Source: Bacteroidota bacterium (GTDB taxonomy: Bacteria; Bacteroidota; Bacteroidia; 2-12-FULL-35-15). From it: a DNA stretch of 54,712 nucleotides. The first letter of the stretch is position 1; each line of letters starts with the position of its first letter. This document shows, piece after piece, positions 3,754 through 54,712 of this stretch. The position numbers were made by a program, and so were the translations under genes. Location of the stretch: NCBI GenBank assembly GCA_029237775.1, contig JAQZBR010000011.1, positions 1-54,712 of the forward strand, in the 5' to 3' direction. Below the pieces are notes generated by a model. It saw nothing but the letters and a program-made list of their open reading frames with translations, had not been told where the DNA came from and did not search any database.

Positions 3754-3759
3754 ATTGAG

Positions 3760-6225: not shown

Positions 6226-6253
6226 TGTTTTCAAAAGGATAATCATATCTTTG
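6226..6253 (+). promoter_or_regulatory. Candidate Bacteroidota promoter for the DUF2911 gene
   Basis: TATCTTTG at 6246-6253 matches the Bacteroidota -7 element TAnnTTTG exactly. A TGTTTT at 6226 lies at the right distance for the -33 element but lacks a perfect TTG. The start ATG at 6283 would follow after an untranslated leader of roughly 24 bases. Confidence 0.5.
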
Positions 6254-6282
6254 CGGATAATTAACCAATCAAAAATAAATAT

Positions 6283-7128
6283 ATGTTACAAAAAATAAAA
6301 TCATTATCGCTTTTACTGTTAGTTACAGTATCTACTTCAATTACCGCACAGTTGAAAGTTCCGGCTCCGAGCCCGTTACAAACCGTTACACAGGCTTTCG
6401 GATTATCAGAGATAAAAATTGAATACTCCCGCCCAAGCGCAAAAGGGCGTGTAATTTTTGGTGATGTTGTCCCTTTCGGGAAAGTATGGCGTACAGGTGC
6501 TAACAGCGCGACAAAAATCACTTTCGGTGATGACGTTAAGATCGAAGGAAATGCTGTTGCTGCAGGAACTTACGCTCTTTATACCACGCCAAACAAAGAC
6601 AATTGGGAGATCATGCTCTACAAGGATTTAACATTAGGTGGAAATGTTGCTGATTACAAAAAAGAAAATGAGCTTGCCCGCTTTTCTGTAAAGCCAAAAG
6701 CTATGTCCGATAAAAAAGAAACCTTTACAATAGATATAGCTGACATGACTGCAAACTCAGCTAACATTGAGCTTGTCTGGGAGAACACACGTGTGGCTTT
6801 CAATGTAACTACTGATATCGATTCAAAGATCATGAAGAACATAGAAGCGAATGTGATCGGTGATAACCGTCCCTATTTCCAGGCTGCAACCTATTACTAC
6901 GAAAACAATAAAGATCTTGCTAAAGCTTTAGAATGGTCTGACAAAGCGATTGCAACCAATCCGAAAGCATATTGGATGCTATTGCTGAAAGCAAAGATCC
7001 AGGCGAAACAAGGTGATAAAAAAGGAGCTGTTACTACTGCAGAACAAGTTGTAAAACTTGCGACTGAAGGCAAAAATGACGATTACGTTACAATGGCAAA
7101 TAAACTGATCGCTGAGAATAAAAAATAA
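6283..7128 (+). CDS. DUF2911 domain protein with C-terminal TPR-like region
   Basis: This 281-residue exported protein begins with a signal peptide (positive MLQKIK, hydrophobic LSLLLLVTVSTS, then ITAQ). The DUF2911 domain fills about residues 24-190, with IEYSRPSAKGRVIFGD, GKVWRTGANSATKITF and AGTYALYTTP. The remaining 90 residues look like one or two TPR helix pairs (ALEWSDKAIATNPKAYWMLL). This layout is the usual one for the family, which occurs mainly in Bacteroidota and has no known function. It has its own promoter candidate and a shared terminator. Confidence 0.9.
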   Translation: MLQKIKSLSLLLLVTVSTSITAQLKVPAPSPLQTVTQAFGLSEIKIEYSRPSAKGRVIFGDVVPFGKVWRTGANSATKITFGDDVKIEGNAVAAGTYALYTTPNKDNWEIMLYKDLTLGGNVADYKKENELARFSVKPKAMSDKKETFTIDIADMTANSANIELVWENTRVAFNVTTDIDSKIMKNIEANVIGDNRPYFQAATYYYENNKDLAKALEWSDKAIATNPKAYWMLLLKAKIQAKQGDKKGAVTTAEQVVKLATEGKNDDYVTMANKLIAENKK

Positions 7129-36164: not shown

Positions 36165-36527
36165 ATGGAAGAAGGATTTGACAAAAATGGATCAGACAGG
36201 GAAGAGATCTTCTCTAAATCTGTAAGAGCAGGGAAAAGAACGTATTTCTTTGATGTTAAAAGCACCAAAGGAAATGATTACTACTTAACAATTACCGAAA
36301 GTAAAAAGCGTTTTGGTGATGACGGTAAATTCTTTTACGAAAAACACAAATTATTCCTTTACAAAGAGGATTTCGAAAAATTTGCTGAAGGTTTGAATGA
36401 AGCTGTAGCCCATATCAAATCAATCTCTCCTGTTGTTGAGCATACATCTTCAGATTCATCTGAGACAGCTTCTTCAACAAGCGACAATAAATTTTCAGAT
36501 GTAAATTTTGAGGATCTCGACAAATAA
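36165..36527 (+). CDS. DUF3276 / PUR-alpha-like nucleic-acid-binding protein
   Basis: This 120-residue protein has the PUR repeat-like core (residues about 14-85: EIFSKSVRAGKRTYFFDVKS, DYYLTITESKKRF, FFYEKHKLFLYKEDFEKF) followed by a Ser/Thr-rich acidic tail ending DVNFEDLDK. The family binds single-stranded DNA or RNA; a Borrelia PUR protein has been shown to do so. The gene has its own terminator. Confidence 0.92.
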   Translation: MEEGFDKNGSDREEIFSKSVRAGKRTYFFDVKSTKGNDYYLTITESKKRFGDDGKFFYEKHKLFLYKEDFEKFAEGLNEAVAHIKSISPVVEHTSSDSSETASSTSDNKFSDVNFEDLDK

Positions 36528-36550
36528 GATTTTCTTATACTAATTATAAA

Positions 36551-36580
36551 GATCCCGCTGACACAAGGCGGGATTTTTTA
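36551..36580 (+). terminator. Terminator of the DUF3276 gene
   Basis: A stem ATCCCGC (36552-36558) with GCGGGAT (36568-36574) is followed by TTTTTT; it lies just before the next ATG. Confidence 0.85.
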
Positions 36581-36592
36581 TTTAAACACGAT

Positions 36593-36835
36593 ATGAATAT
36601 TAACGACTGGATAGGATTTACGGGTGTAACGATTTTACTTCTTGCTTTTTTATTGAACCTTACAGGAAAGATCTCTCAACACGAGCTGCCGTATATTATC
36701 ATGAATATTATCGGGGCAGCGGTGGCCGGACTTGCCTCCTTTCTGATAAATTACATTCCTTTTGTGATCCTTGAGGGTACCTGGACGATCGTTTCTGTGT
36801 GGGGCTTGATCAGCTACTTTAGAAAAAGAATTTAG
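36593..36835 (+). CDS. CBU_0592-type small membrane protein
   Basis: This 80-residue protein has three membrane helices (WIGFTGVTILLLAFLLNLTG, YIIMNIIGAAVAGLASFLI, VILEGTWTIVSVWGLISYF). The pattern of an early LNLTGKI and a late EGTWTIVSVWGL matches the CBU_0592 membrane family of unknown function. It converges with the OmpA-type gene, 24 bases apart, with no terminator between. Confidence 0.82.
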   Translation: MNINDWIGFTGVTILLLAFLLNLTGKISQHELPYIIMNIIGAAVAGLASFLINYIPFVILEGTWTIVSVWGLISYFRKRI

Positions 36836-36859
36836 GATTGAATACTGAGGAATTAGAAA

Positions 36860-39800
36860 TTATTTCTTTTTCCTGATGATCTTAAATTCTGTTCTCCTGT
36901 TCTTTGCGAATTCTTCTTCTGAACAAGCGACACCTTCTTTACATTTATTCACTGGCTTCATCTCACCAAAGCCTTTGCCTTTGATCCTGTCTTTTGGTAT
37001 ACCGCTCGCTATCATATAATCTACAGCGGTTTTAGCACGCAGTCTCGACAGCTTAATATTAAAACCATATGAAGAACGGCTGTCGGTATGTGACTCCAGA
37101 ACCACGTGCAGCTGAGCATCTTCCTTCATGATGAAAATAATTTTATCGAGGATCTTTTTCGCTTCCGGTAAAAGATCAGCCTTACCGTAATCGTAATAAA
37201 GGTTCTCTGCGTTCGTTATCACACCGCTTGCATTATCCTTCCGCAGCTTGGTTACAGCAAGCCATGGATCTTCAATGTAAATTCTGCCAAGAGATTTTTC
37301 TTCACTAGGTAGTATGGTAAAAATGAATTTCCCTCCGGTTTTGATCACCTCTTTTATCACCTTACCATTCTCATCTATGATGTAAATTATTTTCAGATCT
37401 TTAACAGCAGCATCATCTCCGTTTATAGAGAACATGAGATTCTCATCAGTAGGAAGATTACTGAATACAAAACTTCCTTTATCATCTGTCCGGATGCTCT
37501 GAATTACATCACCGTTAGCGTTTACAAAGTTGATTGCAATGTTTGGCAAATGAACTTTATTGTCATTTGTCACGAAGGCCTTCCATTCAAAGCGAAGATC
37601 TTTATTTACAACCTTAAGGTCCTTACCTGCTAGCCTTGTGTCTTCTTCATAAATAATTCCCAGCTTTTTATCTTCGGAAGGCAATACAGTGAAGATGAAG
37701 CTCCCGCCACTCTTCACGATCTCCTTCAGAACATTTCCTTTTTCATCAATTATGTATAAAATAGTAAGGTCCTTGATTCTAGAGTCACTGCCATCCACCA
37801 TGAACATCATTTTTTTGTGCCCGGGAAGGTCTTTAAATATAAAACTTCCTTTTCCATCGGTCCTGATATTTTGAATAATAGTGTTGTTCTCATCGATCAG
37901 ACTTATTCCTGCGTCCGGTAAAGGATTTTTATTGGAATCGACAAGAAATGCCTTCCACTCGAAATGTATTGATCCTTCATTATACTTGCGTTCCAATGCA
38001 AGTTCAGGGTCTTCCACATAGACCTTTCCGAGCAATTTCTCTTCAGAAGGCAAGACAGTGAAACGGAATACTCCTTTGCTTTTCGAGATCTCTTTTATTA
38101 CTTTGCCATTCCCGTCAACAAGGTATAGAAGAGAAAGATCTTTTAACTTCGGATCACTTTCGTCAACAGAAAATAACAGATTTTTTTCTGCCGGAAGATT
38201 GGTAAACAGGAATCCCCCGCTTGCATCTGTTTTAATGCTCTTAATAACATTGCCCTCTGAATCAACAAGATTAATAATAGTATTAGCTAAAGGATCTTTT
38301 TTATCATTCACAAGGAATGCATTAAAATCAAATCGAAGATCCTGATCCTCCACCTGAAGCATTTCCATCGTATGGACATCGGTCGCCAGGAATTCAAACT
38401 TAAATCCACCCTTATTATCTGTTTTGGTCGTGAGAATTTCTTTTCCGGCAATATTCGTCACGATCACCTTTGTATTCGGACTTAGCTGAGTATCCGTTTC
38501 ATCAATCTTCACAAAATAATTTACATCAGGAGGAAGGTTGGTAAAAACAAAGGCACCCAATTCATTTGTGGTAACGGTTTGTATGATCTCACCTTTATCA
38601 TTCACCAGATTTACTTTTGTATTTGGCAAAGGCTTCGAAGGGTTCTCACCATATAATAGATTTCCGGCAAGATTCACCTCTTCCAGGCTAACCTGCGACA
38701 GAGCATTTGGATCATACGGTAAATTCGTAAAAACAAACTTTCCACCCTTGTCGTTGATCACAGTAACCCGCACGATCTTTCCACTCTGATCTGCCATATA
38801 ATACTTTGTGTTCTTCTTCAGATTAGGATCATCTTCATTTAGCTTCACCATATAATTGTTATCCGGATCGAGATTCTCGAACTTGAAAAAACCGGTTGAA
38901 TCAGTGGTAGTAACTTTCAGGATGGTTCCATCCTGTGTGAGAAGGTTCACCTCAACATTCTTCGCAGGATCATTCAGATCCTTGCTTAAAAGTATTTTTC
39001 CTGTTACAGCGACAAACTTATTAAGGACAATAAAACTATAAATATCATCGCTGCCCTTACCACCCGGACGGTCGGAAGAGAGATAACCACTTTTATACTC
39101 GTCATTGAAAAGAACTCCGAAATCATCAGTTGATGAATTGAACGGATATCCCATGTTTTTAATATCAGAATAGATTCCGTCCTTTAAAACAGCGCTGAAA
39201 ACATCCAGGCCACCAAATCCCGAATGAGCATCGGAAGAAAAATACAAATGGCCGTCTTTCCGGATGTATGGAAATACTTCATTGCCTGACGTGTTTATTT
39301 CCGGTCCAAGATTCTGAGGTTTTGCCCAGGAGTCGCCTTCTTTTTTACAAACATAAATATCAGCTCCGCCATTTCCACCTGGCATGTCCGAAGCGAAATA
39401 TAAATTCTGTCCATCTGCTGATAGTGATGGATGTAATATCGAATATGAAAGATCATTAAAAGGGAATGGCTTTGCAGGAACCCATTTATTTCCTTTCAGC
39501 GCATAAATGTACAGCTGCGGACGATTGACAAAAGCCTTATCTTTTTTATTGATGCTGTTTACGCGCGTTACAAAAGCGAGATTCTGCTCTGCATTAAAAC
39601 AAACAGGGCCATCATGAAGCTCTGTGTTTATAGGCCATGGGAAAGATGAAACGTTTTTAGAAAATTGAACCTTTCCTTTATCATCAGTTTTAAATGGGGT
39701 TGTCAGCACGTTCAGATAAGGCTGTTCGTCCCAGTTATCCTGACTTTCATTCACAAGATCTTTTATTTTGGATGAAGCGTATGCAATTTGATTTTTATAG

Positions 39801-40279
39801 AATACCGGGCAAAACTCCGCATGCGGGGTATTGATCGGCAAAACACCTATTTCATACTGCTGAGTGTTAGCTACCCAGATCTTAATATCCTCAAGAGATT
39901 TGAATTGCGTCTCGACCTTTTTATCATCCGGAGCGAGGGCAGAATATTTTTTAAACTCTTCCCGCGCCTGATCGATCTTATTGTTGTTCTTCAGCACAGA
40001 ACCATAATAAAAATGATTGATCGGATTAATATTTTCTTTTTGTACTAAACGGCTGTAATAGATCTCAGCTTGCTTATAGTCTTTTGTTAAGCGGTAGGAA
40101 TTGGCGATCTTCTCAAGAGCTTCAGTGTTGTCATCCCTGTTAAGAACCCGCTTGTACAGCTCGATCGCCTTTTTATAATTGTAATTATCATAGTACTTAT
40201 TCGCGCGTTTGATTTGCGCAAAAGATGCCTGTACAAGGATAACCAGAAATAATAAACCGAATGACCTTACTTTTTTCAT
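36860..40279 (-). CDS. PorE-like OmpA protein (TPR, PD40 propeller, carboxypeptidase-regulatory repeats, OmpA)
   Basis: This is a 1139-residue envelope protein. After the signal peptide (MKKVRSFGLLFLVILVQASF) come TPRs (about residues 25-140), a WD40-like/PD40 propeller (about 160-420; PSLSADGQNLYFASDMPGG, GYLSSDRPGGKGSDDIYSF), then an unusually long run of carboxypeptidase-regulatory-like units (about 425-1010). These repeat INLVDSEGNVIKSIKTD-type and KFIFTILPSEEKSLGRIY-type halves. The C-terminal OmpA domain (about 1015-1139) has LESHTDSRSS, LSRLRAKTAVDYMI and KNRRTEF, which bind peptidoglycan. This order is that of PorE, a T9SS envelope component, but with more middle repeats. It is the last gene of the presumed surface operon, 24 bases after porP/sprF. 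Confidence 0.9.
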   Translation of the reverse strand: MKKVRSFGLLFLVILVQASFAQIKRANKYYDNYNYKKAIELYKRVLNRDDNTEALEKIANSYRLTKDYKQAEIYYSRLVQKENINPINHFYYGSVLKNNNKIDQAREEFKKYSALAPDDKKVETQFKSLEDIKIWVANTQQYEIGVLPINTPHAEFCPVFYKNQIAYASSKIKDLVNESQDNWDEQPYLNVLTTPFKTDDKGKVQFSKNVSSFPWPINTELHDGPVCFNAEQNLAFVTRVNSINKKDKAFVNRPQLYIYALKGNKWVPAKPFPFNDLSYSILHPSLSADGQNLYFASDMPGGNGGADIYVCKKEGDSWAKPQNLGPEINTSGNEVFPYIRKDGHLYFSSDAHSGFGGLDVFSAVLKDGIYSDIKNMGYPFNSSTDDFGVLFNDEYKSGYLSSDRPGGKGSDDIYSFIVLNKFVAVTGKILLSKDLNDPAKNVEVNLLTQDGTILKVTTTDSTGFFKFENLDPDNNYMVKLNEDDPNLKKNTKYYMADQSGKIVRVTVINDKGGKFVFTNLPYDPNALSQVSLEEVNLAGNLLYGENPSKPLPNTKVNLVNDKGEIIQTVTTNELGAFVFTNLPPDVNYFVKIDETDTQLSPNTKVIVTNIAGKEILTTKTDNKGGFKFEFLATDVHTMEMLQVEDQDLRFDFNAFLVNDKKDPLANTIINLVDSEGNVIKSIKTDASGGFLFTNLPAEKNLLFSVDESDPKLKDLSLLYLVDGNGKVIKEISKSKGVFRFTVLPSEEKLLGKVYVEDPELALERKYNEGSIHFEWKAFLVDSNKNPLPDAGISLIDENNTIIQNIRTDGKGSFIFKDLPGHKKMMFMVDGSDSRIKDLTILYIIDEKGNVLKEIVKSGGSFIFTVLPSEDKKLGIIYEEDTRLAGKDLKVVNKDLRFEWKAFVTNDNKVHLPNIAINFVNANGDVIQSIRTDDKGSFVFSNLPTDENLMFSINGDDAAVKDLKIIYIIDENGKVIKEVIKTGGKFIFTILPSEEKSLGRIYIEDPWLAVTKLRKDNASGVITNAENLYYDYGKADLLPEAKKILDKIIFIMKEDAQLHVVLESHTDSRSSYGFNIKLSRLRAKTAVDYMIASGIPKDRIKGKGFGEMKPVNKCKEGVACSEEEFAKNRRTEFKIIRKKK

Positions 40280-40303
40280 AAAAATTGGGAACCTGTCCTG
40301 TAC

Positions 40304-41245
40304 TTAGAAGTACGCATGACGCGGAGAAAGCATTTTCGATTTATAAATATTAAAATCATAACTCAGCATCAGCTCATGGCTTGGCCCTCCTGCCCTTTCG
40401 ATTTTGTTGAAACCGATATCCATTGAATAACCCATTTTAAATTTATCTGTGATATGCATTTGAGCATAGATCACCATGGTTTTGTTTGATCGTACCGACA
40501 GACCTAACCAGATCTTTTGCTGTAACAGAAAACTGAAATTCAGGTCAACGGAAGCCGGAGTGTGCTTTGCCACTTTTATTGCACAGGAAGGATTGAAAGT
40601 AAGCTGATCGGAAATCTCCCAGCCTTTGCCAAACGTTGCAAAAAGATGAGGGGAAAGCTGTGCATCATCACCGTTTAAATTAGAAACAGATGTAAGCCTT
40701 CCGTTATAAAGATGAGTTGCGGAAATGCCCGCATACAAACTATTTGTATGATAATACATTCCGGCATCAGCTGTGGGAACTACGATAGAGGTGCGGGTGT
40801 GCGTGTTGTAGACATCTGCCTGATCCTTATAAATGATCTCGTCCCAATTGTACACATAGTTATAAATTCCTGCACGCAGTCCGAATGAAAGTTTTCCTTT
40901 ACCAACCGGTATTCTATATGCATAAGAGCCGAGGGCTCCAACACTTTGCTTTGGGCCTATCTGATCGGCAATTGCAGCGAAGCCCAAGCCGACTTTCCTT
41001 TTTTTCAGAGGCCCGTGTACAGATATTGATTCGGTTTTAGGGGCACCATCAATTCCGGACCATTGCGCCCTGAGGAACATGGCTGCACTGATTGCTTCTT
41101 TACTTCCCGCGAATGCAGGATTGATCACCAGCTGATTGAACATGTACTGACTGTACTGCGGATCCTGCTGTGCAAACAAGCTTGCGGCCCCTTTCCAGAA
41201 GAAAGAGCACAACATGAACAGTATTACAATTACCGGTTTTTTCAT
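40304..41245 (-). CDS. PorP/SprF family T9SS outer-membrane protein
   Basis: This 313-residue outer-membrane beta-barrel has the diagnostic QQDPQYSQYMFNQLVINPAF after the signal peptide, then SQWSGIDGAPKT-like (here RAQWSGIDGAPKTES), IADQIGPKQSVGALGSYAY, and regular beta strands to the end. In Flavobacterium SprF is needed for surface delivery of SprB, a type B sorting cargo. Here it starts seven bases after the stop of a gene for a type B sorting-domain protein, which strongly suggests a dedicated cargo-partner pair. Confidence 0.95.
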   Translation of the reverse strand: MKKPVIVILFMLCSFFWKGAASLFAQQDPQYSQYMFNQLVINPAFAGSKEAISAAMFLRAQWSGIDGAPKTESISVHGPLKKRKVGLGFAAIADQIGPKQSVGALGSYAYRIPVGKGKLSFGLRAGIYNYVYNWDEIIYKDQADVYNTHTRTSIVVPTADAGMYYHTNSLYAGISATHLYNGRLTSVSNLNGDDAQLSPHLFATFGKGWEISDQLTFNPSCAIKVAKHTPASVDLNFSFLLQQKIWLGLSVRSNKTMVIYAQMHITDKFKMGYSMDIGFNKIERAGGPSHELMLSYDFNIYKSKMLSPRHAYF

Positions 41246-41252
41246 TGATTCA

Positions 41253-42002
41253 CTAATGCGTTAATTCGATCCAGCCTTTATACTTTTCTCTGTTCGTTTC
41301 TACGAGGTAAAAATAAGTAGCGTCAGGAAGGTCTTGCCCCCTGCGGTTTTTACCCTCCCAAACCACGTTTACATTGTCATAATTTCTTCCCACCCATACG
41401 AGATCTCCCCATCTGTTATAAATTGAAACAACGTTTTCAGGGAAATTGATGATGCTATCAATCTGCCAGTTGTCATTGTTCCCATCTCCATTCGGTGTGA
41501 TACCATTATAGAAAGAGAGTGTTGTCCCGTGACAATCAATCATATCTTCGGTGATCACAACAGTTCCCGTAACAGAACTGATGCTGTCGCTGACAGTATA
41601 CTGATATGTCCCCGGAGGAAGTTTAACCGCCAGGCTTGTGTCTCCTGCAACGGATGGTGACCATACATATGATACATCCCCAACAGCATTGATCGGAGTT
41701 AAAGCGATACTACCATTGTTTGCACCAATACAGGTTGAATTCACGCTTGCTTCTGTAACCATTAAAACATTGTTTTCCGGTTGCTGAAATCCCTGTGTGA
41801 TCGTTTTAATCGTAAAAGGGCTTCCTGTGATATAAGTAGTTGTCATAACCTCCCCTACTGTATAATCAAGCGAGCCCCATGGTGCAGTGCTTGTCCCACC
41901 GGTGGTTCCGAGAACCTGACGGGGGTTGGGCTGTACCTGCGCGGATATTGTTGCGGCAAGGCAAACCAAACATATAATTGATATATAATTTTTTAAGTCC
42001 AA
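41253..42002 (-). CDS. Small T9SS cargo with SprB-like region and type B (CHU_C) sorting domain
   Basis: This 249-residue protein starts at a TTG directly after the TAA of the S74 gene (no gap), followed by a good signal peptide (LKNYISIICLVCLAATISAQ); no in-frame ATG is available before the signal region ends. Middle part: VLGTTGGTSTAPWGSLDYTV, ITQGFQQPE, then one SprB-like unit (SVNSTCIGANNGSIAL). The C-terminal 90 residues (FYNGITPNGDGNNDNWQID, FPENVVSIYNRWGDLVW, LPDATYFYLV) are a type B sorting domain. It lies between the giant fibre genes and porP/sprF and may be the adapter that links them to the T9SS. Confidence 0.9.
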   Translation of the reverse strand: MDLKNYISIICLVCLAATISAQVQPNPRQVLGTTGGTSTAPWGSLDYTVGEVMTTTYITGSPFTIKTITQGFQQPENNVLMVTEASVNSTCIGANNGSIALTPINAVGDVSYVWSPSVAGDTSLAVKLPPGTYQYTVSDSISSVTGTVVITEDMIDCHGTTLSFYNGITPNGDGNNDNWQIDSIINFPENVVSIYNRWGDLVWVGRNYDNVNVVWEGKNRRGQDLPDATYFYLVETNREKYKGWIELTH

Positions 42003-45000
42003 TTATTTCTTTTCAATAAGTTTTTTCTGCGCTTGTAATTCCTTCTTTAATGCCTCGATCTGCGCCTGCTGTTCTTTAATTGCATTGATTAACATATACG
42101 TCATAGCCCCATTATCCACTCCCAGGTATTTCTTTTCTTCCCCGGTAAGAATTCCTTCTTTGTCGGAAGGCTTAAAGCTCCATTCTTTCACCATATATGG
42201 AGCTACTTCCTGAAGTTCCTGAGCAATGACACCAATTCCTGTTTCTTTCGGCATATTAGCTTCACCGGTATAGGTGAACCAAACAGGCTTAATCCTCATG
42301 AGTTCTGCGAGGCCTTCTTCATAAGGATGTACATTCGACTTTAATCTTGCATCTGAAGCAACAGTCCACACATTTGAAGTGGGCTTTGCAGCACTGTTCA
42401 AAGTAAGCTGAAGCTGGTAAGCTGGAGCGGTAACCCCGATTCCAAGGTTCGATGATAAATAATTATCTGTTTCACCCGACACAAAAATACCGTAACGGGT
42501 AGTGCCTGTACCTGTATTATTCAAATGAAGGCCATAACCAACGCCAGTTCCATCGTTAACAGTATTAAAGTAGGCACCTGTTACATTACCTGAAGAACCC
42601 GTAGGTTTTGTCGCATTACTCGAAATCCCAAAGATTGAAGAAGCGTTTGTAGATAAACTGCTGACGGTGTTATAAAAACCATACCGTGTTCCGCTTCCGA
42701 CAGCTGACATAGAAGCGTATAACCCAAATGCCTGTCCGATACCGCTTGGTGTCATTGCCACCTGGTAACCATAAATAGAGCTCGCGTCACCGGCTAAGCC
42801 TATTACGCTCGAACTGATTCCATATTTACTCCCACTTCCGGCCCCATCCACATTAACATCGATACCGTATTTGGTGGAGGCACCAGTATAGTTATTGGTA
42901 ACTACTAAACCGATCGGATTTAATGCATCTGAACTAGGAATCTCTACGTTTAACCTTGCTGATCCCGGTAACGAAGTACCGATACCCACGTTCCCTGTAT
43001 TAGAGATCCGCATCCGTTCCACAGGCGTTGTGGTACCGTCAAGACTCGTATGAAACTCAAGTCTACCAGGCATATCGTTTGCCGCTGCTGAACCATCAAT
43101 GACTCCCTGTACGCGTGCTCCTTCCCTGAAAGCAGTCCCATCCCAGCCCTGAAAACCTACGCCTCCGAAATAATCACCGGAAAGAGGAATTGATGGAACT
43201 GCTGCTGTTCCCCTTGCTCTTTTGATATGTAAGGAGCTCGATTCAGTAGCGCTGTATGTTTCGACATCAACATCAGAATCTATTGAAGATAACTCCAGAA
43301 GTTCTGCAGGAGTGCTTGTACCAATCCCGATATTTCCGTTATCAGCAATATCAAATCTGGAAACTGAAAGGTTTGTTCCTGCATCATTATAGATCTGCAT
43401 AAATTGTAAACCTGCAGCACCTGTTTCTTTTAAAGTCCATCTATGAACACCGGCTCTTCTGATCGTAAATGCCTGCCCTGAAGTTCCGTCAATCGAAAGA
43501 ATTTCACCCGCCACGTCCAGTTTTCCATACGTTGGCGCAACACCAATACCTGCATTGGTTCCATTATCCTGAATTGCACCAATTCCTAGCTGCGTACTTG
43601 AAGTCCACCTCGCAGAGTAATTTATTGTTCCCGTTCCTGAAACTCCTAAAGAAGAAACGGGTGTCCATGCTAAAGTACCTGATCCGTTTGACGTTAAAAC
43701 ATCATTTGCATTTCCATCATCGGGAGGCAGAAGGTACGCGGTATTTTGTGTCATTGCTACCGGTGGAGAAAAACTGGCTTCGAAATCAGTCGCCCCTTGT
43801 TCTGAGTAGATCCTTAAGTGTCCGTCCCTTCCTGCATACCCGGTGCGGATAGTTCCCGCGACATCAAGATCATACACAGGCTGATCTGTGACGTTTGGCA
43901 TGTTAATTCCAAGCTTACCGGTATTATCAAAATATAAGAACGGAGCGGTTCCTGTTCCGTTATACCATGTAAGTCTCATATCATTCTGTACAGCAGCCGT
44001 TCCATTTCCATTGCCATATGCGAGCCACTGCCATCCTTTTGTGCCGGTGCCGTTAACAGGATTGATCCCGTCCCCAAGAGTAGCCATATTAAAAGTCACT
44101 CCTGAGCTGTTCGCAGGATCTTCTATCTGAAGATCACCTCGGCTGTGAATCTTAGTTGTTGGTGTCGCAGTTCCAACACCGATGTTTCCGCCATTCGTAA
44201 TTACCAAACGATTAACAGTATTATTTGTCCAGAAATTCATTGAATTATTACTGTTATCATATTGAATAGCGCCACTGTAATTGTTTGTGCTGCTTCCCAT
44301 AAAATAAGAAGCTTTACCAGTTGTACCTCCTATAACGGAAACTGCAGAATTATCAGTAGACGCAGTATTATTCACTACCTGAATCTTTTCAGCCGGAGTG
44401 CTGGTTCCTACTCCTAGGCGAAGATTCGTATTGTCCCAGAAAAAACGGGAATTATTTTGCGTTAAAGAAGTACCGTTACTGAAAATGACAGAACCGGCAG
44501 TATAAGGAGTTGAATTATTTGTCCCGCCATTTGTTATCGGAACAATGCCTGATAAAGAGATGATAGGGCTTGTTCCTCCTGTTGATGAAAGAGGACTTGA
44601 TGCAGTTACATTTGATACTCCCGTTGCGGGTGCAGACCATGAAAGAACTCCGGTTCCGTCAGAAACTAAAACGTCATTTGCATTACCATCATCAATTGGT
44701 AAGGTGTAATTCACGTTAGCTGCTAATGCTGCAGGGGCTTTGAATGAAACAATCTGTGCGCCATTAGCCAAAGCTTCTTTGAACCTTAACTCCGTCTGAG
44801 TTCCTGTATTTGAAAGAAGGATATGGCCATCCTGAACTTCAAGTTTTTGATTTGGAGTATTTGTCGTCCCTATACCGACATTTCCGTCAGCTGCAATCAT
44901 CATTTTGGTAGTTGCTGATGTTGCAAATAAATTACTCGTAGAAAAATAAAGATCTGTTCCTGTCCCTACGGAAAAACTTTGTGCAGCAACAGCCGCAATT

Positions 45001-46787: not shown

Positions 46788-46827
46788 TAGAATTCTAAAT
46801 TATTTTTCTGTGTAATCTTTTTACTGG

Positions 46828-49800
46828 CTATGGTTTGTAAACTATAAATGTGAAATTGTAGTCAGTTAACACTCCCGAGCAGTTATATGTATTAACGAGC
46901 AGATTGCTTCCAACACTGTTGCTACCTATGGAACCACAAGCGGTAGTATTAATGGTTAATGAAGTCGTATAATTTGAAAAGAAATACGACTCACCGGTTA
47001 TGGTTATAGAATACTGGCCTGTACCTGTTTTATTAACGGTAAAGTTGTTTGTACTTGCCGCGGTGTTAATGGTTCCGGCAGATGAGATATTGCCATAGCA
47101 GATCGGGACCAAATTAGCGGTGCCGGTTTTTGTTTGATTGATAAGCTCTATATTATCAATATTAACTGCGCCTCCTGTGAAATATCCTGACAAACCAAGA
47201 GAGTTTCCATTAGCATATAGTGCACTTGTCATAACCGGAAGGGTGGGCACTGTTGGACTCAAACCAGCATACACCCCTGTAGCATAATAACTGCCAGCTG
47301 CATCTGCAATTCCCATAACACCGTTGCCATATCCCCAGCCCGGCTGACCCTTTCCGAATCCTAACACCGCGACATTTTGATAATCTGTAGAGGTTGTACT
47401 TTGGCTTGCTTCTCCGCGTATGGTATATTTACTGATGTCAGCGGCATGAACTGCATGTAACTTAGAAGTAGGTGACAGAGTTCCTATTCCAACACTTCCA
47501 TTTGCATTCATTAATACTCTTGTTGTGTTCGATACATTATCAAAAATGTAAAACTCCTGCGCTCCCGTTTCTCCGGCATCTGTTCCTATAGAGAATCGAT
47601 CTGCTCCATTTTTGGCAAAAGATAATTCAGACTTGTTACCCGTCCCGGAAGTTCTGTTAAGACGCACCTTAAAAAAGGCGGCATCTGCTACTTCTAATTT
47701 AGCTCCCGGTGTTGCCGCCCCAATACCGACATAATTATTACTACTTAAAATATTTACCGCATCTGTTCCTGTTGCCCAGTTACGGAAATTTAAATTTTCA
47801 TTTCCAATTGTTCCAATGGTCCACTTATCTACACTTGCAGTTTGTAATACTAAATAACTGTTGCTTGAAGCATTGCCTTTGCTTATAATAACTCCGGCTA
47901 AACCGGTAGTTGATCTTGCCTGAATAAAGCTTGAACCTGTAGTAGAAGTGACATCCAGATTATAACCAGGACTGTTAGTACCTATTCCCACATAAGTACC
48001 GTTATCGTATAAAGTTCCTGTTCCCAAAGTTGTTCCGGTTGGTGTCCATCGTGCAACATAATTGGTAGAGCCGCTTCCGGTAATAGTTCCTCCAGTAGCA
48101 ACACTAAGATTGCCGCTTGCATCTGCTACGACAGTTCCCGGCCCTACAAGCCCGGTTATTCTGGCGTTTCCAACAACATGAAGCTGGGTGGAAGGAACGG
48201 GAGTACCAATACCTACCTTAACCGCATCAACACCGGCCCCCCCTAAGGCCATTACATTGTCTGCATCCACACGGGCATTATATCCGATTGCAACAGACTT
48301 ATTTCTTTGAGTGGTAGTAAGTATGTCGGCCGAGTATCCTATAAAGACATTCTGAGACCCTGTTGTGTTGTTACTTCCTGCATAAGCACCAAGAAAAGTG
48401 TTTTGTGCACCGGATGTATTTCCCTGTCCGACATTTGAACCGAAGAAAGAGTTATTGGAGGAGGTTGTTGCATAACCGGTCTGGTAACCCACCATAGTGT
48501 TATTACCCGAGGTTGTGTTTGTGTAACCGGATTGGAACCCAAGATAAGTGTTTGCGCTTCCGGAAGTATTGTAATAACCGCTATTATATCCCAGAAAAAC
48601 TCCATTACTCGCTGTATTATTCGCACCGGAAAACGCTCCGACAAATGTATTGTTGCTATGGTTGTTACCGAAGAAACCTGCCTGAGTCCCTATAAAAACG
48701 TTATCATTTCCGGTCTGATTTGCACTTCCCGCCTGAAATCCGAAACCAGCATTGCGGATACCTGAGGTATTTCCTGATAATGCATATCCCCCGCTTGCCG
48801 TGTTCCAGTAACCGCCAAGATTGGAATTAAGAGCCGAATATCCGGTAGCTGTATTATCATATCCGGTGGAGTTTATATATAATGAATACATACCATTGGC
48901 AGTGTTTTCATAACCACTGGAATTAGCACTCAGAGCCATCGCACCTGTTGCAGTGTTATTATTTCCTGTATTGGAAGAAGGCGAAACTGATCCACGTAAA
49001 GCTTCAAATCCAACTGCAACATTATAATTTGTGAATGCGGTTCCGGTATTGTTTGCATATCTCATTGAGTTATATCCTATCGCCACAGCATTAGAACCGC
49101 TTCTGTTATTATACATCGCTTCATATCCCAATGCCACGTTATAACTTCCTGTTGCATTATTTAACATTGAACTTGTCCCTGCAGCAAGGTTACCAGTTCC
49201 AGTAGTATTTGTAAGTAAGGTAGAGGTTCCGAGAGACACGTTATAATTACCTGTTGTATTCCCTTGCATAGCAGTAGCACCTAAAACAGAGTTCCCGGTA
49301 CCTGAAGAGTTAGCCTGCAGGGTTTGATAGCCAATTGAAGTGTTTGCCAAACCCGTGTTATTTGAAGCGGTGGTAGATCCTCTTAATGCTTCATATCCCA
49401 GGGCCACATTATTATTATTGTAAGGCGTTGTCTGGTCATTAGCATAATACATGGCATTGTAACCAACAGCAGTTGCGTTGCTTGCAGCTTTACTCGATGT
49501 TAAAGCATGGTAACCAATGGCTGTATTGTTACTTCCAACAGTATTCATTACCATCGTTAAAAAACCTTCAGCTACGTTATTATTACCGGTGGTATTATTA
49601 AAAAGCGCCTGAAGTCCGACAGCTGAGTTTGAGCCACCACTTGTATTTGAATTAAGGGTTTGATAACCGAAACCTGAATTATTGGTCCCGGTATTTACCA
49701 ATCCTGATTGATATCCGAAGAAGGTATTACCACCTGTATTTTCAATTCTTCCGGCTTTTTGGCCGTTTACACGGATATTAAAAGGAACGTTATCTGTTGT

Positions 49801-50862
49801 TCCGATAAAATTAGTTCCGTCAACCGTACCGAGGTTACCTAACAAGGTCCAGTTTGTTGAGTTAGATCCGGTTGCAATACTAAGGTTTCCACTGGCATCT
49901 GCAATGACAGTACCCGGCCCCACCAAACTTGTGATTCTCGCAGTACCAACAACATGTAAGTTAGCGCTTGGAATGGATGTTCGGATACCAACCTGACCAT
50001 TATCATTAACATATAACATATCAGCAGAAGAGCTGTTTGTTATTCGTAAAGATGAAGTAGCATTTGTACTTCCCGAACCCACAATATATAGTTTCGAAGT
50101 AGGATTGAGAAAATCAATACCGATGTTACCATTATTATCGAAATACATCGAATTAACGAAGGAGGTTCCGTTATAAAAACGTAATGCAAAATCATTCTGG
50201 CGGCCAGCTGGATTGAAAGCGGCTGAATAAGATTTCAACTGCCATCCAGTAACGCCACCGGTACCTACAAAAGACGAAGAGCTGTTATTTCCGCCAGTGG
50301 TGAAGTCGATAGTTGCAGAACCGTTAACATTTCCACCATCGCCATCCATTATAAATCTCGGTCCATTATTTTTAAAAATATGTAGGTCGCCAGCAGGTGT
50401 ATTATTAAAGATCCCAACCGAAGTGCCGTCATCAAAGATTGAGGAGTTTCCAAGAGTTGTTCCTGATACGTTATCCCATTTTGCGACTTGATTTTGAGTT
50501 CCGAAACCTGTCAGAGCGCCAGTGGTTGAAGGGTTTCCGGAAGCGGTCAACATCTGCCAGTTAGTACCGTCATAAGCAAGCGTAACAATTTGTCCGGCTT
50601 GGATATCTCCACCAGCCAGAGGAGCATTACCACCTTCTTTGGTAATATTAATTGCTCCGGTACCGGTTACATTAATTGTAGGCGCGGCAGTGCACGCAGA
50701 ATGGGCCTTAAAAGTTACCTGAACTCCGTTCCTTAAAGGAAATATGGCAGGAACATTCAACACGTACGCGGAACTGGTACCGGATGAAACAATTTCCACC
50801 TGTGCCTTAACTGTTGTTGTTAAGCTTAAAATTAATATTAGTATGAATGATCTGACTTTCAT
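46828..50862 (-). CDS. Giant tail-fibre/YadA-head-like surface protein
   Basis: This is a 1344-residue protein. It shares with its downstream neighbour the signal peptide type and a nearly identical N-terminal domain (residues about 21-108: AQVEIVSSG, AYVLNVPAIFPLRNGVQVTF, AGQVVTLAYDG). After some beta units come a WTLLGN-GT-GTNFIGT module and then an exceptionally long run of about twenty head repeats (NTAIGYHALTS, NVALGYEAL, NTATGYSALNSN; about residues 385-900), more VGIGTNSPGYNLDV units and a different C-terminus: a beta domain of about 110 residues (YSITITGESYFFS to FTFIVYKP) instead of S74. AAGGG-like AAGGGT precedes the ATG. It is separated by 27 bases from the collagen-like gene and 40 from the S74 gene. 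Confidence 0.88.
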   Translation of the reverse strand: MKVRSFILILILSLTTTVKAQVEIVSSGTSSAYVLNVPAIFPLRNGVQVTFKAHSACTAAPTINVTGTGAINITKEGGNAPLAGGDIQAGQIVTLAYDGTNWQMLTASGNPSTTGALTGFGTQNQVAKWDNVSGTTLGNSSIFDDGTSVGIFNNTPAGDLHIFKNNGPRFIMDGDGGNVNGSATIDFTTGGNNSSSSFVGTGGVTGWQLKSYSAAFNPAGRQNDFALRFYNGTSFVNSMYFDNNGNIGIDFLNPTSKLYIVGSGSTNATSSLRITNSSSADMLYVNDNGQVGIRTSIPSANLHVVGTARITSLVGPGTVIADASGNLSIATGSNSTNWTLLGNLGTVDGTNFIGTTDNVPFNIRVNGQKAGRIENTGGNTFFGYQSGLVNTGTNNSGFGYQTLNSNTSGGSNSAVGLQALFNNTTGNNNVAEGFLTMVMNTVGSNNTAIGYHALTSSKAASNATAVGYNAMYYANDQTTPYNNNNVALGYEALRGSTTASNNTGLANTSIGYQTLQANSSGTGNSVLGATAMQGNTTGNYNVSLGTSTLLTNTTGTGNLAAGTSSMLNNATGSYNVALGYEAMYNNRSGSNAVAIGYNSMRYANNTGTAFTNYNVAVGFEALRGSVSPSSNTGNNNTATGAMALSANSSGYENTANGMYSLYINSTGYDNTATGYSALNSNLGGYWNTASGGYALSGNTSGIRNAGFGFQAGSANQTGNDNVFIGTQAGFFGNNHSNNTFVGAFSGANNTASNGVFLGYNSGYYNTSGSANTYLGFQSGYTNTTSGNNTMVGYQTGYATTSSNNSFFGSNVGQGNTSGAQNTFLGAYAGSNNTTGSQNVFIGYSADILTTTQRNKSVAIGYNARVDADNVMALGGAGVDAVKVGIGTPVPSTQLHVVGNARITGLVGPGTVVADASGNLSVATGGTITGSGSTNYVARWTPTGTTLGTGTLYDNGTYVGIGTNSPGYNLDVTSTTGSSFIQARSTTGLAGVIISKGNASSNSYLVLQTASVDKWTIGTIGNENLNFRNWATGTDAVNILSSNNYVGIGAATPGAKLEVADAAFFKVRLNRTSGTGNKSELSFAKNGADRFSIGTDAGETGAQEFYIFDNVSNTTRVLMNANGSVGIGTLSPTSKLHAVHAADISKYTIRGEASQSTTSTDYQNVAVLGFGKGQPGWGYGNGVMGIADAAGSYYATGVYAGLSPTVPTLPVMTSALYANGNSLGLSGYFTGGAVNIDNIELINQTKTGTANLVPICYGNISSAGTINTAASTNNFTVNKTGTGQYSITITGESYFFSNYTTSLTINTTACGSIGSNSVGSNLLVNTYNCSGVLTDYNFTFIVYKP

Positions 50863-50889
50863 ATACCCTTATATGATAGATATTTCAAA

Positions 50890-53800
50890 TTATTTTAATA
50901 ACACTTTAGCTGTTCCGCCTGCAGAGCCGTTGGTTAAATAAATACCGACCGTAGTTCCTGCTCCAGGAATTGCAATTCCACTTGCTTTACCGTTTATATT
51001 TCCTGTAACACAATGCTGACCGCGAATTACAGCATTTGAATTGTCAAGGTTTACAGTTACAACACCTGATATTGCAACCTTTGCTATTGCTCCATCTGCA
51101 ACTGATTCCGTAACTATACCTACAACTCCGTAATGCCCCTGGCTACTAGTGAGCGAGAACGAGTTATCAATTGAGCCAATTATAACAATGTCGCCTACCA
51201 CTGATACAGACCCTGACTTATTAATAAGTGAGATGCAAATATTATTGTTACCAGCAGCTGTACCATCACCGACAGAAATTTGCCCCGCAACTGTCACTCT
51301 CATTTTTTCAACTGAATTAGTTTTAATTACGAGATCCTGAGCGTTTTGAGTTCCGAGGTAATTTGTTCCGGCTGTAGTACCTGTGTTACCCGTTAAACCC
51401 CATGCATTCAAGGCACCGTCAGCACCCGTTGCTCCGGTCATACCGACCGACCCCGTGGAACCTGTACTTCCAGTTGTACCTGTAGATCCTGTTAAACCAG
51501 TTGAACCTATAGTACCAGTCGCTCCGGTAGAACCGGTTGAGCCTGTGCTACCTGTTGTTCCTGTAGAACCTGTTACACCTGTTGAACCTATAGTACCAGT
51601 TGCTCCGGTAGAACCTGTGCTTCCAATTGTTCCTGTAGAACCTGTTACACCTGTAGAACCGATAATTCCGGTGGCACCTGTAGATCCTGTACTTCCAATT
51701 GTTCCTGTCGAGCCTGTTACACCAGTTGAACCTACTGTTCCGGTTGCACCGGTAGAACCTGTGCTACCAATTGTACCTGTTGAACCTGTTACACCCGTTG
51801 AACCAATAGTTCCGGTTGCACCGGTTGAACCCGTGCTACCTATTGTTCCGGTTGAACCTGTAACACCCGTTGATCCTATAGTTCCGGTGGCTCCTGTAGA
51901 ACCTGTGCTACCTATTGTTCCAGTAGAACCGGTAACACCCGTTGAACCAATAGTTCCGGTTGCTCCGGTAGAACCTGTGCTACCAATTGTACCTGTTGAA
52001 CCTGTTACACCCGTTGAACCGATAGTTCCGGTTGCACCGGTTGAACCTGTGCTACCAATTGTACCTGTAGAACCTGTTACACCCGTTGAACCAATAGTTC
52101 CGGTTGAACCCGTGCTACCAATTGAACCTGTTGAACCTGTTGGTTGCACCGGTAGAACCTGTGCTACCAATTGTACCTGTTGAACCTGTTACACCTGTTG
52201 AACCAATACTTCCTGTTGCTCCTGTAGAACCTGTGCTACCTATTGTTCCAGTAGATCCTGTTACACCCGTTGAACCTATAGTTCCGGTCGCACCCGTAGA
52301 ACCTGTGCTACCAATTGTACCTGAAGAACCTGTGACACCCGTTGAACCAATAGTTCCGGTTGCACCGGTTGAACCCGTGCTACCTATTGTTCCGGTTGAA
52401 CCTGTTACACCCGTTGAACCTATAGTTCCGGTCGCACCCGTAGAACCTGTGCTACCAATTGTACCTGTAGAACCTGTTACACCCGTTGAACCAATAGTTC
52501 CGGTTGAACCCGTGCTACCAATTGAACCTGTTGAACCTGTTTAGTTCCGGTTGAACCCGTTACACCTGTCGCTCCGATATCACCTGTGGCACCCGTAGAG
52601 CCTGTACTTCCAATTGTTCCTGTAGAACCCGTTACACCAGTCGAACCAATAGTTCCTGTAGCACCCGTAGATCCGGTGCTACCAATTGTACCTGTTGATC
52701 CTGTTACACCTGTTGAACCAATAATTCCTGTTGAACCTGTGCTACCAATTGTACCTGTTGATCCCATTACACCCGTGCTACCAATTGTTCCGGTTGAACC
52801 TGTAACACCCGTTGATCCTATAGTTCCGGTTGAACCTGTTGAGCCTGTGCTACCAATTGTTCCTGTTGATCCCGTTATACCCGTGCTACCTATTGTTCCA
52901 GTGGCACCTGTTACACCCGTTGAACCAATTGTTCCGGTTGAACCAGTTGCACCCGTTGAACCAATAGTTCCGGTTGAACCTGTTGAACCTGTGCTACCAA
53001 TTGTTCCAGTGGCACCTGTTACACCCGTTGAACCAATTGTTCCGGTTGCACCGGTAGATCCTGTGCTACCAATTGTTCCGGTTGAACCAGTTACACCTGT
53101 AACTCCGATATCACCTGTTGCACCTGTAGAACCTGTGCTACCTATTGTCCCTGTAGAACCTGTTACACCCGTTGAACCGATAGTTCCGGTTGCACCGGTA
53201 GAGCCCGTGCTACCAATTGTACCTGTTGAACCAGTTACACCTGTTGAACCTATAATTCCGGTTGAACCCGTGCTACCTATCGTTCCAGTAGAACCGGTAA
53301 CACCCGTTGATCCAATAGTTCCGGTTGCACCGGTAGATCCAGTGCTTCCAATTGTTCCGGTTGAACCTGTTACACCCGTTGAACCTATAGTTCCGGTCGC
53401 ACCGGTAGAGCCTGTGCTACCAATTGTACCGGTTGAACCGGTTAGACCTGTCGCTCCAATATCACCTGTGGCACCCGTATTGCCTGTACTTCCAATTGTT
53501 CCTGTAGAACCCGTTACACCTGTTGAACCTATAGTTCCGGTTGCACCGGTAGATCCAGTGCTTCCAATTGTACCAGTTGAACCTGTTACACCCGTTGAAC
53601 CAATTGTTCCGGTTGCACCGGTAGATCCAGTGCTTCCAATTGTACCAGTTGAACCTGTTGCACCCGTTGAACCAATAGTTCCGGTTGAACCTGTAGATCC
53701 TGTGCTTCCAATTGTTCCGGTTGAACCTGTTACACCTGTCGCTCCGATATCACCTGTGGCACCCGTAGAGCCTGTACTTCCAATTGTTCCTGTAGAACCC

Positions 53801-54712
53801 GTTACACCTGTTGAACCAATAGTTCCTGTAGCACCCGTAGATCCGGTGCTACCAATTGTACCTGTTGAACCTGTTAAACCCGTTGAACCTATAGTTCCAG
53901 TAGAACCGGTAACACCTGTCGCTCCGATATCACCTGTGGCACCCGTAATTCCTATGTTACCTGTTGCTCCGGTTGAACCTGTTACACCTATAACTCCAGT
54001 CGCACCAGTTACACCAGTTGAACCAATTGATCCCGTGGCTCCTGTATTACCATTATTTCCAGTTGCACCTATAACTCCAGTCGAACCAGTTACACCTGTT
54101 GAACCTATAGTTCCGGTTGCTCCGATTTCACCCGTTGCACCTATAATGCCGGTCGAACCAGTTACACCCGTGGAACCAATCGTTCCGGTTGCACCTGTAT
54201 TACCATTATTTCCGGTTGCTCCGATTTCACCAGTTGCCCCTATAACTCCAGTCGAACCGGTTACACCTGTTGAACCAATGGTTCCGGTTGCTCCGGTACT
54301 ACCATTATTTCCGGTTGCTCCAATTTCGCCAGTTGCTCCTATAACTCCAGTCACACCTGTTGAACCAATCGTTCCAGTCGCTCCAGTATTACCATTATTA
54401 CCGGTAGCACCGATTTCTCCTGTTGCTCCGGTATTACCATTATTTCCGGTTGCTCCGATTTCACCCGTTGCACCTATAACTCCAGTCGCACCAGTTACAC
54501 CAGTTGAACCAATCGTTCCAGTCGCTCCGGTATTACCATTATTACCTGTAGCTCCGATTTCACCCGTTGCACCTATAATTCCAGTCGAACCAGTTACGCC
54601 TGTTGAACCAATGGTTCCGGTTGCTCCGGTATTTCCATTATTTCCGGTTGCTCCAATTTCACCCGTTGCACCTATAACTCCAGTCGCACCAGTTACACCT
54701 GTTGAACCAATC
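50890..54712 (-). CDS. Giant collagen-like Gly-X-Y protein (5' partial, two frame breaks)
   Basis: The frame runs from the right edge to the TAA at 50890. About 3300 bases code for uninterrupted Gly-X-Y triplets ([21 protein letters not shown]) with a 24-residue period. No proline, lysine, arginine or aromatic residue occurs in this part. The last 174 residues (50893-51414) are a globular end: AWGLTGN-GT-GTNYLGT module shared with both downstream genes, then a beta-rich domain ([47 protein letters not shown]). As assembled, the frame is broken at 52541/52542 and at 52141/52142; the middle 400 bases are open in another frame, also all Gly-X-Y. An assembly fault is likely (see findings). The start and any signal peptide lie outside the window. 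Confidence 0.8.
52043..52141. repeat. 99-base exact repeat, copy 1, ending at a frame break
   Basis: Bases 52043-52141 equal 52443-52541 without a difference, and the base on either side differs. The reading frame of the collagen-like gene changes by one base exactly at its right end. Confidence 0.8.
52443..52541. repeat. 99-base exact repeat, copy 2, ending at a frame break
   Basis: This is the second copy of the sequence at 52043-52141, offset by 400 bases. The frame changes by two bases exactly at its right end (52541/52542). Confidence 0.8.

What the first reader, a model, noticed from the sequence alone, without database searches (positions are those of the whole stretch)
36860..54712. 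Presumed 18-kb operon joining collagen-like, phage-fibre-like and T9SS genes
Seen: six genes on one strand with gaps of 27, 40, 0, 7 and 24 bases, in the order collagen-like giant, YadA-head/tail-fibre giant, tail-fibre giant with S74 chaperone, small type B sorting-domain cargo, PorP/SprF, PorE-like OmpA. Known: type B cargo depends on a partner SprF-like barrel; PorE-like proteins tie the T9SS to peptidoglycan; S74 domains drive trimerisation of fibres. Inference: the operon encodes a dedicated surface appendage, with the three giant trimeric fibres forming stalk and heads, and the small type B protein acting as adapter to the T9SS, because none of the fibres with a visible C-terminus has a sorting domain. 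I know of no described system with this set of parts.
Basis: partly seen in the sequence, partly recalled or inferred. Interest (0 to 1): 0.85.

Follow-up and report, generated by a model that had tools for sequence, protein, structure and literature searches.

The report
T9SS adapters for CTD-less surface fibres
Many bacteria of the class Bacteroidia pair a small surface-sorted protein with giant collagen- and phage-tail-like fibre proteins that have no visible exit tag of their own, and this window holds an elaborate version of the pair; it suggests how such fibres are held on the cell surface.

Summary
The six-gene observation is real (gaps 27, 40, 0, 7, 24 nt), but the window is a whole contig that cuts the collagen-like gene, and that gene has two frame jumps. 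Its 5' end is probably on contig C8 of the same genome. The order fibre(s) - type B cargo - PorP - PorE-like recurs: a fibre precedes the cargo in 18 of 23 readable PorP-orthologue loci, four of them in other families. It is one case of a wider arrangement. The small cargo starts with an unnamed ~57-aa module that elsewhere carries a type A or type B T9SS signal. Many fibres start with an unnamed beta-sandwich domain, remotely like the Bdellovibrio MAT N-domain, and carry no detected signal. In 197 genomes the two co-occur: 118 both, 5 fibre only, 0 adapter only, 74 neither. In 60 genomes 56 of 72 adapters had a listed fibre within 5 kb (about 1 expected), all same strand; conversely 62 of 150 listed fibres had an adapter that near. 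I infer that the small protein docks, and possibly carries out, the fibre, with PorP/PorE as a static anchor in the type B version. Linkage is shown; docking and exit route are inferred.

The parts
50890..54712 (-). Collagen-like stalk protein gene, 3' part only (5' part probably on contig C8, C8:1-3416 minus strand); frame jumps near 52540 and 52140
   Evidence: Pfam collagen 5e-38
50893..51267 (-). CAP domain, C-terminus of the collagen-like protein; matched in 10 of 197 genomes
46828..50862 (-). Giant fibre 2 (1344 aa), head-like repeats, no CTD match, no Pfam family
50533..50802 (-). N2 domain, N-terminus of fibre 2
42003..46787 (-). Giant fibre 3 (1594 aa) ending in an S74 chaperone domain, no CTD match
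46443..46712 (-). N2 domain, N-terminus of fibre 3
42189..42356 (-). Peptidase_S74 domain of fibre 3 (residues 1478-1533)
41253..42002 (-). Small type B cargo / proposed adapter (249 aa, TTG start)
41769..41939 (-). Adapter module (mature N-terminus, motif ...YTVGE...TQGFQQP)
41652..41756 (-). Single weak SprB repeat (24.2 bits, Pfam cut-off 28)
41262..41516 (-). Type B T9SS C-terminal sorting domain
40304..41245 (-). PorP/SprF-like outer-membrane barrel; no cysteine in the last 40 residues
36860..40279 (-). PorE/CHU_0125-like protein: TPR, PD40, CarboxypepD_reg repeats, OmpA domain
36929..37198 (-). OmpA domain of the PorE-like protein

Best explanation
The locus encodes a static surface appendage built from fibres that carry no T9SS signal. 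The small protein is a T9SS-sorted adapter: its CTD takes it to the surface (type B via its own PorP; type A, in other loci, presumably via PorV), and its conserved N-terminal module holds the conserved N-terminal domain of the fibre encoded next to it. In the window the type B adapter sits on PorP, and the PorE-like protein ties PorP to peptidoglycan. The collagen-like protein is the stalk; its C-terminal CAP domain is the likely docking site for the N2 domains of the two further fibres, whose repeats and tips resemble phage tail fibres. Shown: domains, conserved linkage, near-strict genomic co-occurrence, no detected CTD on the fibres, CTD type predicting PorP. Inferred: trimer formation, adapter-fibre docking, CAP-N2 docking, surface position, and whether the adapter also carries the fibre across the outer membrane.
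For: Adapter module: 72 matches in 32 of 60 class genomes; 56 of 72 had a listed fibre N-domain within 5 kb, 1.23 expected, 56 of 56 on the same strand. In loci L066 and up, 55 of 64 adapters had a fibre within 5 kb, median gap 23 bp (four of the 64 lie in loci chosen by their fibre). In 197 genomes: both 118, fibre only 5, adapter only 0, neither 74. CTDs: of 84 adapters 55 matched the type A and 33 the type B Pfam model; of 73 fibres none matched any CTD model in NCBIfam (all 16 families shown), nor in Pfam as far as shown (25 of 27 families). PorP lies downstream of 29 of 31 type B but 1 of 50 type A adapters; 6 of 8 against 1 of 50 in loci not chosen through PorP; 6 of 87 unclassified. Cognate adapter/fibre distances correlate (57 pairs), rho 0.31 against 0.17 sd 0.05 for within-genome re-pairing, 0 of 500 as high. 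A CAP gene is directly followed by an N2 gene in 7 of 8 strong-CAP genomes, two of them not used as seeds. The adapter module is the best conserved part yet scores about 41-52 pLDDT alone, as expected, though not proved, for a partner-dependent fold. PorE-PorP-type B complex and static anchoring are published (PMC9143113 abstract; PMC12618676 sections 4, 11, 12).
Against: No interaction was tested. Only 62 of 150 listed fibres had a detected adapter within 5 kb; of 16 loci fetched around such orphan fibres, 3 hold a weakly matching adapter and 13 none, so a cognate neighbour is not the rule for fibres; adapters would have to act in trans or be divergent. Bdellovibrio MAT fibres reach the surface, and Bdellovibrio has no T9SS as far as I recall, so such fibres need not use it for export. 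SprA was present in 191 of 197 genomes, so T9SS dependence is barely testable by presence; G091 has fibres and adapters without a detected SprA. Five of 23 type B loci have no fibre upstream (G002, G012, G027, G029, G058). Of 64 adapters in L066 and up, 9 have no fibre ORF within 5 kb, five of them a conserved solo adapter. Some G085 adapter-like proteins have no recognised CTD. The window's two N2 fibres match neither the A3 nor the MAT model (for MAT).
Confidence: 0.57

Rival explanations
1. Docking only: the fibres cross the outer membrane by another, unknown route, as Bdellovibrio MAT fibres must, and the T9SS adapter is just their surface receptor.
For: Remote match of 70 of 73 fibres to the Bdellovibrio MAT N-domain model; the MAT N-domain is proposed to bind an unidentified surface element (PMC10769870, discussion); 67 of 73 fibres have signal-peptide-like starts by a crude pattern, 1 a lipobox-like one.
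Against: No other export route is known for them; I did not search the loci for one.
Confidence: 0.3
2. Piggyback secretion: adapter and fibre meet in the periplasm and the T9SS translocon moves the complex out, led by the adapter's CTD.
For: 118 of 123 genomes with fibres also have the CTD-type partner, and no adapter genome of 118 lacks fibres; T9SS moves folded cargo (established knowledge, recalled).
Against: A long trimeric fibre is a demanding cargo; no precedent in the listings seen. MAT fibres manage without T9SS (recalled).
Confidence: 0.28
3. The small proteins are ordinary cargo adhesins or enzymes that are merely co-regulated with fibres.
For: No binding data; solo adapters exist; most listed fibres have no detected adapter next to them.
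Against: The most conserved part is a short module with no Pfam enzyme match; near-strict co-occurrence and co-variation.
Confidence: 0.17
4. The fibres are prophage or injection-system tail fibres that happen to lie by T9SS genes.
For: PHROGs tail-fibre matches to repeats and tips; weak N2/CAP relatives beside endolysin and collar-fibre matches in L150; CAP of L083 weakly resembles Phage_cement_2 (20.1 bits, cut-off 24).
Against: Signal-peptide-like N-termini; one fibre N-domain found no tblastn match in 50,697 phage records and no PHROGs match; conserved synteny.
Confidence: 0.03

Closest known systems
Type B cargo - PorP/SprF - PorE operons (F. johnsoniae Fjoh_3952/3951/3950; P. gingivalis PG1035/PorP/PorE)
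   Same: Same three families; in F. johnsoniae in the same order; proposed static, cell-wall-tied complex (PMC12618676 sections 4, 11, 12; PMC9143113 abstract)
   Different: In F. johnsoniae the type B protein is taken to be the adhesin (PG1035's function is unknown); here it is a 249-aa protein with an extra N-terminal module beside giant fibres with no CTD
Bdellovibrio mosaic adhesive trimer (MAT) fibres (PMC10769870)
   Same: Signal peptide, conserved beta-rich N-domain, long fibre, S74 or other variable phage-like tip; 70 of 73 fibres match NF053851 at E up to 0.01
   Different: Scores I saw are below the model's cut-off of 60 bits; a T9SS adapter and collagen stalks are not mentioned in the parts that I read; the window's two N2 fibres do not match
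SprB/SprF gliding adhesin
   Same: Type B CTD, SprB repeat, PorP/SprF barrel
   Different: Window PorP lacks the C-tail twin cysteine that SprF uses to ride the gliding track (PMC12635249 passages) and has a PorE-like partner
Trimeric autotransporters (YadA type)
   Same: Head-like repeats, presumed trimer
   Different: No C-terminal YadA anchor seen

Membership tests
Type B cargo - PorP - PorE operon | Cargo with type B CTD (TIGR04131) | tested here: met
   54.9 bits, cut-off 35
Type B cargo - PorP - PorE operon | PorP/SprF-family barrel directly downstream | tested here: met
   TIGR03519 260 bits, cut-off 90.55; 7-nt gap
Type B cargo - PorP - PorE operon | PorE homologue with OmpA-type domain | tested here: inconclusive
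   OmpA and PD40 over Pfam cut-off, but PorE 328 of 600 bits and CHU_0125 451 of 620 bits
Type B cargo - PorP - PorE operon | Secretion depends on the cognate shuttle | not testable with these tools
   needs a mutant
Bdellovibrio MAT fibres | Conserved N-domain after the signal peptide (NF053851), collagen gene start on C8 | tested here: inconclusive
   33.1 bits, E 1.2e-7, cut-off 60; not reported in the scan of the L066 protein
Bdellovibrio MAT fibres | Same N-domain in the two other window fibres | tested here: not met
   no NCBIfam match at E 0.01; they carry N2 instead
Bdellovibrio MAT fibres | S74 or variable adhesive tip | tested here: met
   S74 in window 42003-46787; among 73 fibres 12 S74, 9 Lcl_C, 2 C1q
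Bdellovibrio MAT fibres | Trimeric and surface displayed | not testable with these tools
   needs experiment
SprF-type gliding shuttle | Twin cysteine in the C-tail | tested here: not met
   window PorP cysteines at 13 and 221 only
Trimeric autotransporter | C-terminal YadA anchor domain | tested here: not met
   no such Pfam match in the two giants; none among the 25 of 27 families shown for 73 fibres
Phage tail fibre / prophage | Conserved fibre N-domain found in phages | tested here: not met
   one N-domain: no tblastn match at E 1e-3 in 50,697 phage records, no PHROGs match

The most novel reading that the evidence does not exclude
Bacteroidia use a two-partner T9SS route: a small CTD-bearing adapter binds a trimeric fibre without a CTD in the periplasm and takes it through the translocon, then serves as its base; in the type B version stalk and tips are assembled from separate gene products through CAP-N2 joints, a bacterial counterpart of jointed phage tail fibres.
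Probability: 0.28. Interest if true: 0.9.

Novelty: new variant of a known kind. Interest (0 to 1): 0.76.

Why it matters
How fibres with no exit tag reach and stay on the surface is unknown; for Bdellovibrio MAT fibres the surface element that binds the N-domain was left open in print (PMC10769870, discussion). The pair found here names a concrete candidate partner and two short domains that can be tested for binding. It also suggests that many small annotated T9SS sorting-domain proteins are fibre bases rather than effectors, and that lists of T9SS-displayed proteins miss the fibres.

Tried and rejected
Single-operon novelty: rejected as the main claim because the adapter-fibre pair is the wider unit. 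A fibre in G003 (L039:5742-7928) looked by eye as if it had its own type A CTD, but neither Pfam, NCBIfam nor my own CTD model matched it, so I dropped that claim. Fold identity of the fibre N-domain: Foldseek best E 2.1e-3 (phage XM1 neck, 7kjk), none at or below 1e-3; VIA Z at most 7.2, so only a generic beta-sandwich; relatives not listed are not excluded. Adapter structure: module not confidently modelled with 22 sequences. T9SS dependence by presence: weak, 1 of 6 SprA-negative against 122 of 191 SprA-positive genomes have fibres, p 0.03. Bacteroidota promoter consensus (recalled: TTTG, spacer, TAnnTTTG): no hit on the minus strand of 36501-54712 or C8 1-9000. Co-variation can also come from joint inheritance of a linked locus. 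CAP seeds were first chosen from loci that had N2, so only the genome-wide searches and the non-seed genomes count as a test. The fetched stretch L157 was of no use.

Literature: seven of the ten paper searches looked for a described adapter-fibre or T9SS-collagen/tail-fibre system; the listings showed none, but only 12 of 287, 15 of 116, 10 of 14 and 10 of 15 papers were listed. One search (mosaic adhesive trimer with Bacteroid-) found 0 papers. Seen: PMC12618676 abstract, sections 4, 11, 12 and passages; PMC9143113 abstract and outline; PMC12635249 passages; PMC10769870 abstract, passages and discussion. No paper was read whole; most subscription papers are not held.
Full report
WHAT IS IN THE WINDOW. 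Family scans confirm collagen repeats, an S74 domain, a type B T9SS signal with one weak SprB repeat, a PorP/SprF barrel and a PorE/CHU_0125-like protein with OmpA domain. The middle giant (46828-50862) has no Pfam match. The window is the whole contig C7 of its genome (G000, 12 contigs), so the collagen-like gene is cut. It also changes frame near 52540 and back near 52140. Promoter- and terminator-like sites are not in excess (31 against 36.6 in shuffles; 8 against 11.1).

THE MISSING START. The best match in this genome to the N-terminal domain of other loci's collagen-like fibres is C8:2958-3293. It starts a collagen-repeat gene on the minus strand that runs to base 1 of contig C8 and also jumps frame. 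C7 and C8 share repeats but no exact end overlap. Upstream of it on C8 lie HAMP-SpoIIE, TPR and DUF4154 (YfiR/HmsC-like) genes. Genes of similar size and C-terminus lie upstream of the fibre, or of its place, in L041, L042, L043, L054 and L055 (some with further genes between); Pfam was run on two of them, both in L042. So C8 probably precedes C7; this is inference.

CONSERVATION OF THE OPERON. The PorP protein was searched in 59 genomes, the own one included. I took the best, orthologue-like locus in each of 25 other genomes (43-71% identity). In two the contig ends before the upstream genes (G022, G017). Of the 23 readable, 18 have a fibre gene upstream of the type B gene, judged by BLAST to the window's fibres, collagen-type or VGIGT repeats, S74 motif or A3 domain: G003-G007, G009, G010, G014-G016, G024, G025, G032, G033, and from four other families G040, G041, G050, G053 (S74 or collagen confirmed by Pfam for several). 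In G024 and G050 another ORF lies between, and G050's type B protein is 793 aa long. Five have none (G002, G012, G027, G029, G058). Three further loci were fetched but not counted (G040:C90 at 46%, G057 at 41%, G042 at 37%); they have large type B proteins (796-3850 aa) and no fibre gene was flagged, so with them it is 18 of 26. G067 (L083), from a sixth family and found by another route, has a cut CAP-ended gene, an N2 fibre with S74 (1.4e-11), a type B adapter, PorP and a PorE-like protein in this order. Five of the eleven PorP-paralogue loci of the own genome were read and have no flagged fibre (L061-L065).

A WIDER PAIR. The type B proteins share a mature N-terminal module of about 57 residues (22 sequences; kept when the SprB repeat is lost, in L053). 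Pfam gave it no name. A named-genome scan with the small protein gave 8 loci: two are the G015 and G005 loci, four match by other parts, and two, L028 and L029, carry the module with a type A signal (TIGR04183 37.2 and 42.8 bits, cut-off 23) beside a collagen fibre (L028) and, one gene away, a fibre with an S74-like end (L029, the same place as L074 of G036). Many fibres share an N-terminal domain of about 110 residues ('A3'). In 60 class genomes of at least 90% completeness the module gave 72 matches in 32 genomes; A3 matches lay in 37 (150 places listed, more not listed). Of 72 adapters 56 had a listed A3 within 5 kb, against 1.23 expected by uniform placement; 56 of 56 same strand. The 16 others include the window (contig cut), other contig ends, two with fibres at 5.7 and 7.7 kb, and five solo adapters. 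In the other direction, 62 of the 150 listed fibres had an adapter within 5 kb. Of 16 loci fetched round fibres without a listed adapter, 3 hold a weakly matching one (L131, L137, L139) and 13 none. So adapters mostly sit by fibres, but many fibres do not sit by a detected adapter.

INDEPENDENT GENOMES. With broader models (A6 at E 1e-6, A7 at E 1e-3), 197 genomes gave fibre 123, adapter 118: both 118, fibre only 5, adapter only 0, neither 74 (Fisher 9e-49, which ignores shared ancestry). Among the 131 genomes numbered G095-G225, which gave no seeds to these models, fibre 80 and adapter 75. There 27 of 70 listed adapters had a listed fibre within 5 kb, 0.82 expected, though only 54 of the 184 fibres reported for those genomes were listed. 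For the 43 unmatched adapters I read four loci, covering five of them (L149, L154, L155, L156); all four loci have a fibre within 5 kb. A named example is plasmid pAUEa of Aureispira anguillae: a 161-aa 'T9SS type A sorting domain-containing protein' with the module, then, 3 nt on, a 633-aa fibre.

DIVISION OF LABOUR. Of 84 adapter proteins (three short, cut or near-identical ones of 87 left out) 55 match the type A and 33 the type B Pfam model, some both. Of 73 fibres 37 have collagen, 12 S74, 9 Lcl_C; none matches a CTD model in NCBIfam (all 16 families shown) and no CTD family is among the 25 of 27 Pfam families shown; my own CTD models hit no A3 fibre. The 73 are part of 89 listed; the other 16, many of them long or cut, were left out. 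PorP follows 29 of 31 type B but 1 of 50 type A adapters; in loci not chosen through PorP, 6 of 8 against 1 of 50; 6 of 87 were unclassified. Cognate distances co-vary within genomes (57 pairs).

JOINTED FIBRES. The two window giants share an N-terminal domain, N2, and the collagen gene ends in a domain, CAP. Genome-wide, CAP is in 10 of 197 and N2 in 15 of 197, both at E 1e-3. In 7 of the 8 genomes with a strong CAP (E below 1e-20) the next gene starts with N2: G000, G015, G040, G064, G067, and the non-seed G124 and G130; the eighth, G201, has CAP on an A3 fibre with a type A adapter. In G133 weak relatives of both lie in a prophage-like stretch. N2 also occurs without CAP (for example G219, G062, G131). 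The CAP of L083 weakly resembles phage cement proteins (20.1 bits, cut-off 24). I read this as a stalk with exchangeable tips.

STRUCTURE AND RELATIVES. The fibre N-domain is modelled with confidence (pLDDT 90, pTM 0.82) as a beta-sandwich with no close solved relative seen. It matches NF053851, the Bdellovibrio MAT N-domain, in 70 of 73 fibres (best 1.2e-13); the scores I saw are below the cut-off, so homology is likely and membership open. In this genome four such fibres were found: one on C4 and two on C5, each a few bases from a type A adapter (the C4 one weak; L067-L069), and the one on C8, which goes with the window's type B adapter if the contigs join. The adapter's module is not confidently folded alone.

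MECHANISM. Published: PorE, PorP and a type B protein form a complex (PMC9143113, abstract); a type B protein beside a PorE-like gene appears static (PMC12618676, sections 11, 12); SprF rides the gliding track by a C-tail twin cysteine (PMC12635249, passages), which the window's PorP lacks. So the window's base should be static. The adapter docks the fibre N-domain; whether it also carries the fibre out is open. That Bdellovibrio MAT fibres reach the surface without T9SS (absence recalled) counts against need for T9SS export, not against docking.

Noticed in passing
window 52140-52540 and L066 near 850: Three frame jumps in collagen repeats on two contigs, the two in the window compensating each other; probably assembly error.
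   Followed up: partly
L081, L082, L095, L097, L099: A solo type A adapter beside a gene that looks by eye like an iron alcohol dehydrogenase, in five genomes, with no fibre next to it; it may serve distant fibres in the same genome.
   Followed up: partly
L039:5742-7928 (G003): A fibre with S74 domain and MopE-like metal motif whose end resembles a type A CTD by eye; no CTD model matched it.
   Followed up: yes
L150 (G133) 3754-7040: Weak N2 and CAP relatives among small genes with endolysin and collar-fibre matches, looking like a prophage; a possible source of the domains.
   Followed up: partly
L066:3694-6972: HAMP-SpoIIE, TPR and YfiR-like genes upstream of the fibre start, with a sigma factor gene divergent from them; possible regulation.
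   Followed up: partly
L076, L077, L096, L115 (G085): Adapter modules on larger proteins with no recognised CTD and a dockerin-like ending (ending judged by eye).
   Followed up: no
L083:1-2388: CAP domain weakly matches Pfam Phage_cement_2.
   Followed up: no
window 101-3163 +: SprB-repeat protein with type A CTD and long DNA tandem repeats (243, 198, 396 bp).
   Followed up: no
window 3517-3694: Short tandem repeats (12-60 bp) in an ORF; lysine/alanine-rich by eye.
   Followed up: no
G089 C1:2603711-2610850: SprA match broken by several in-frame stops in a single-contig genome; sequencing error or decay.
   Followed up: no
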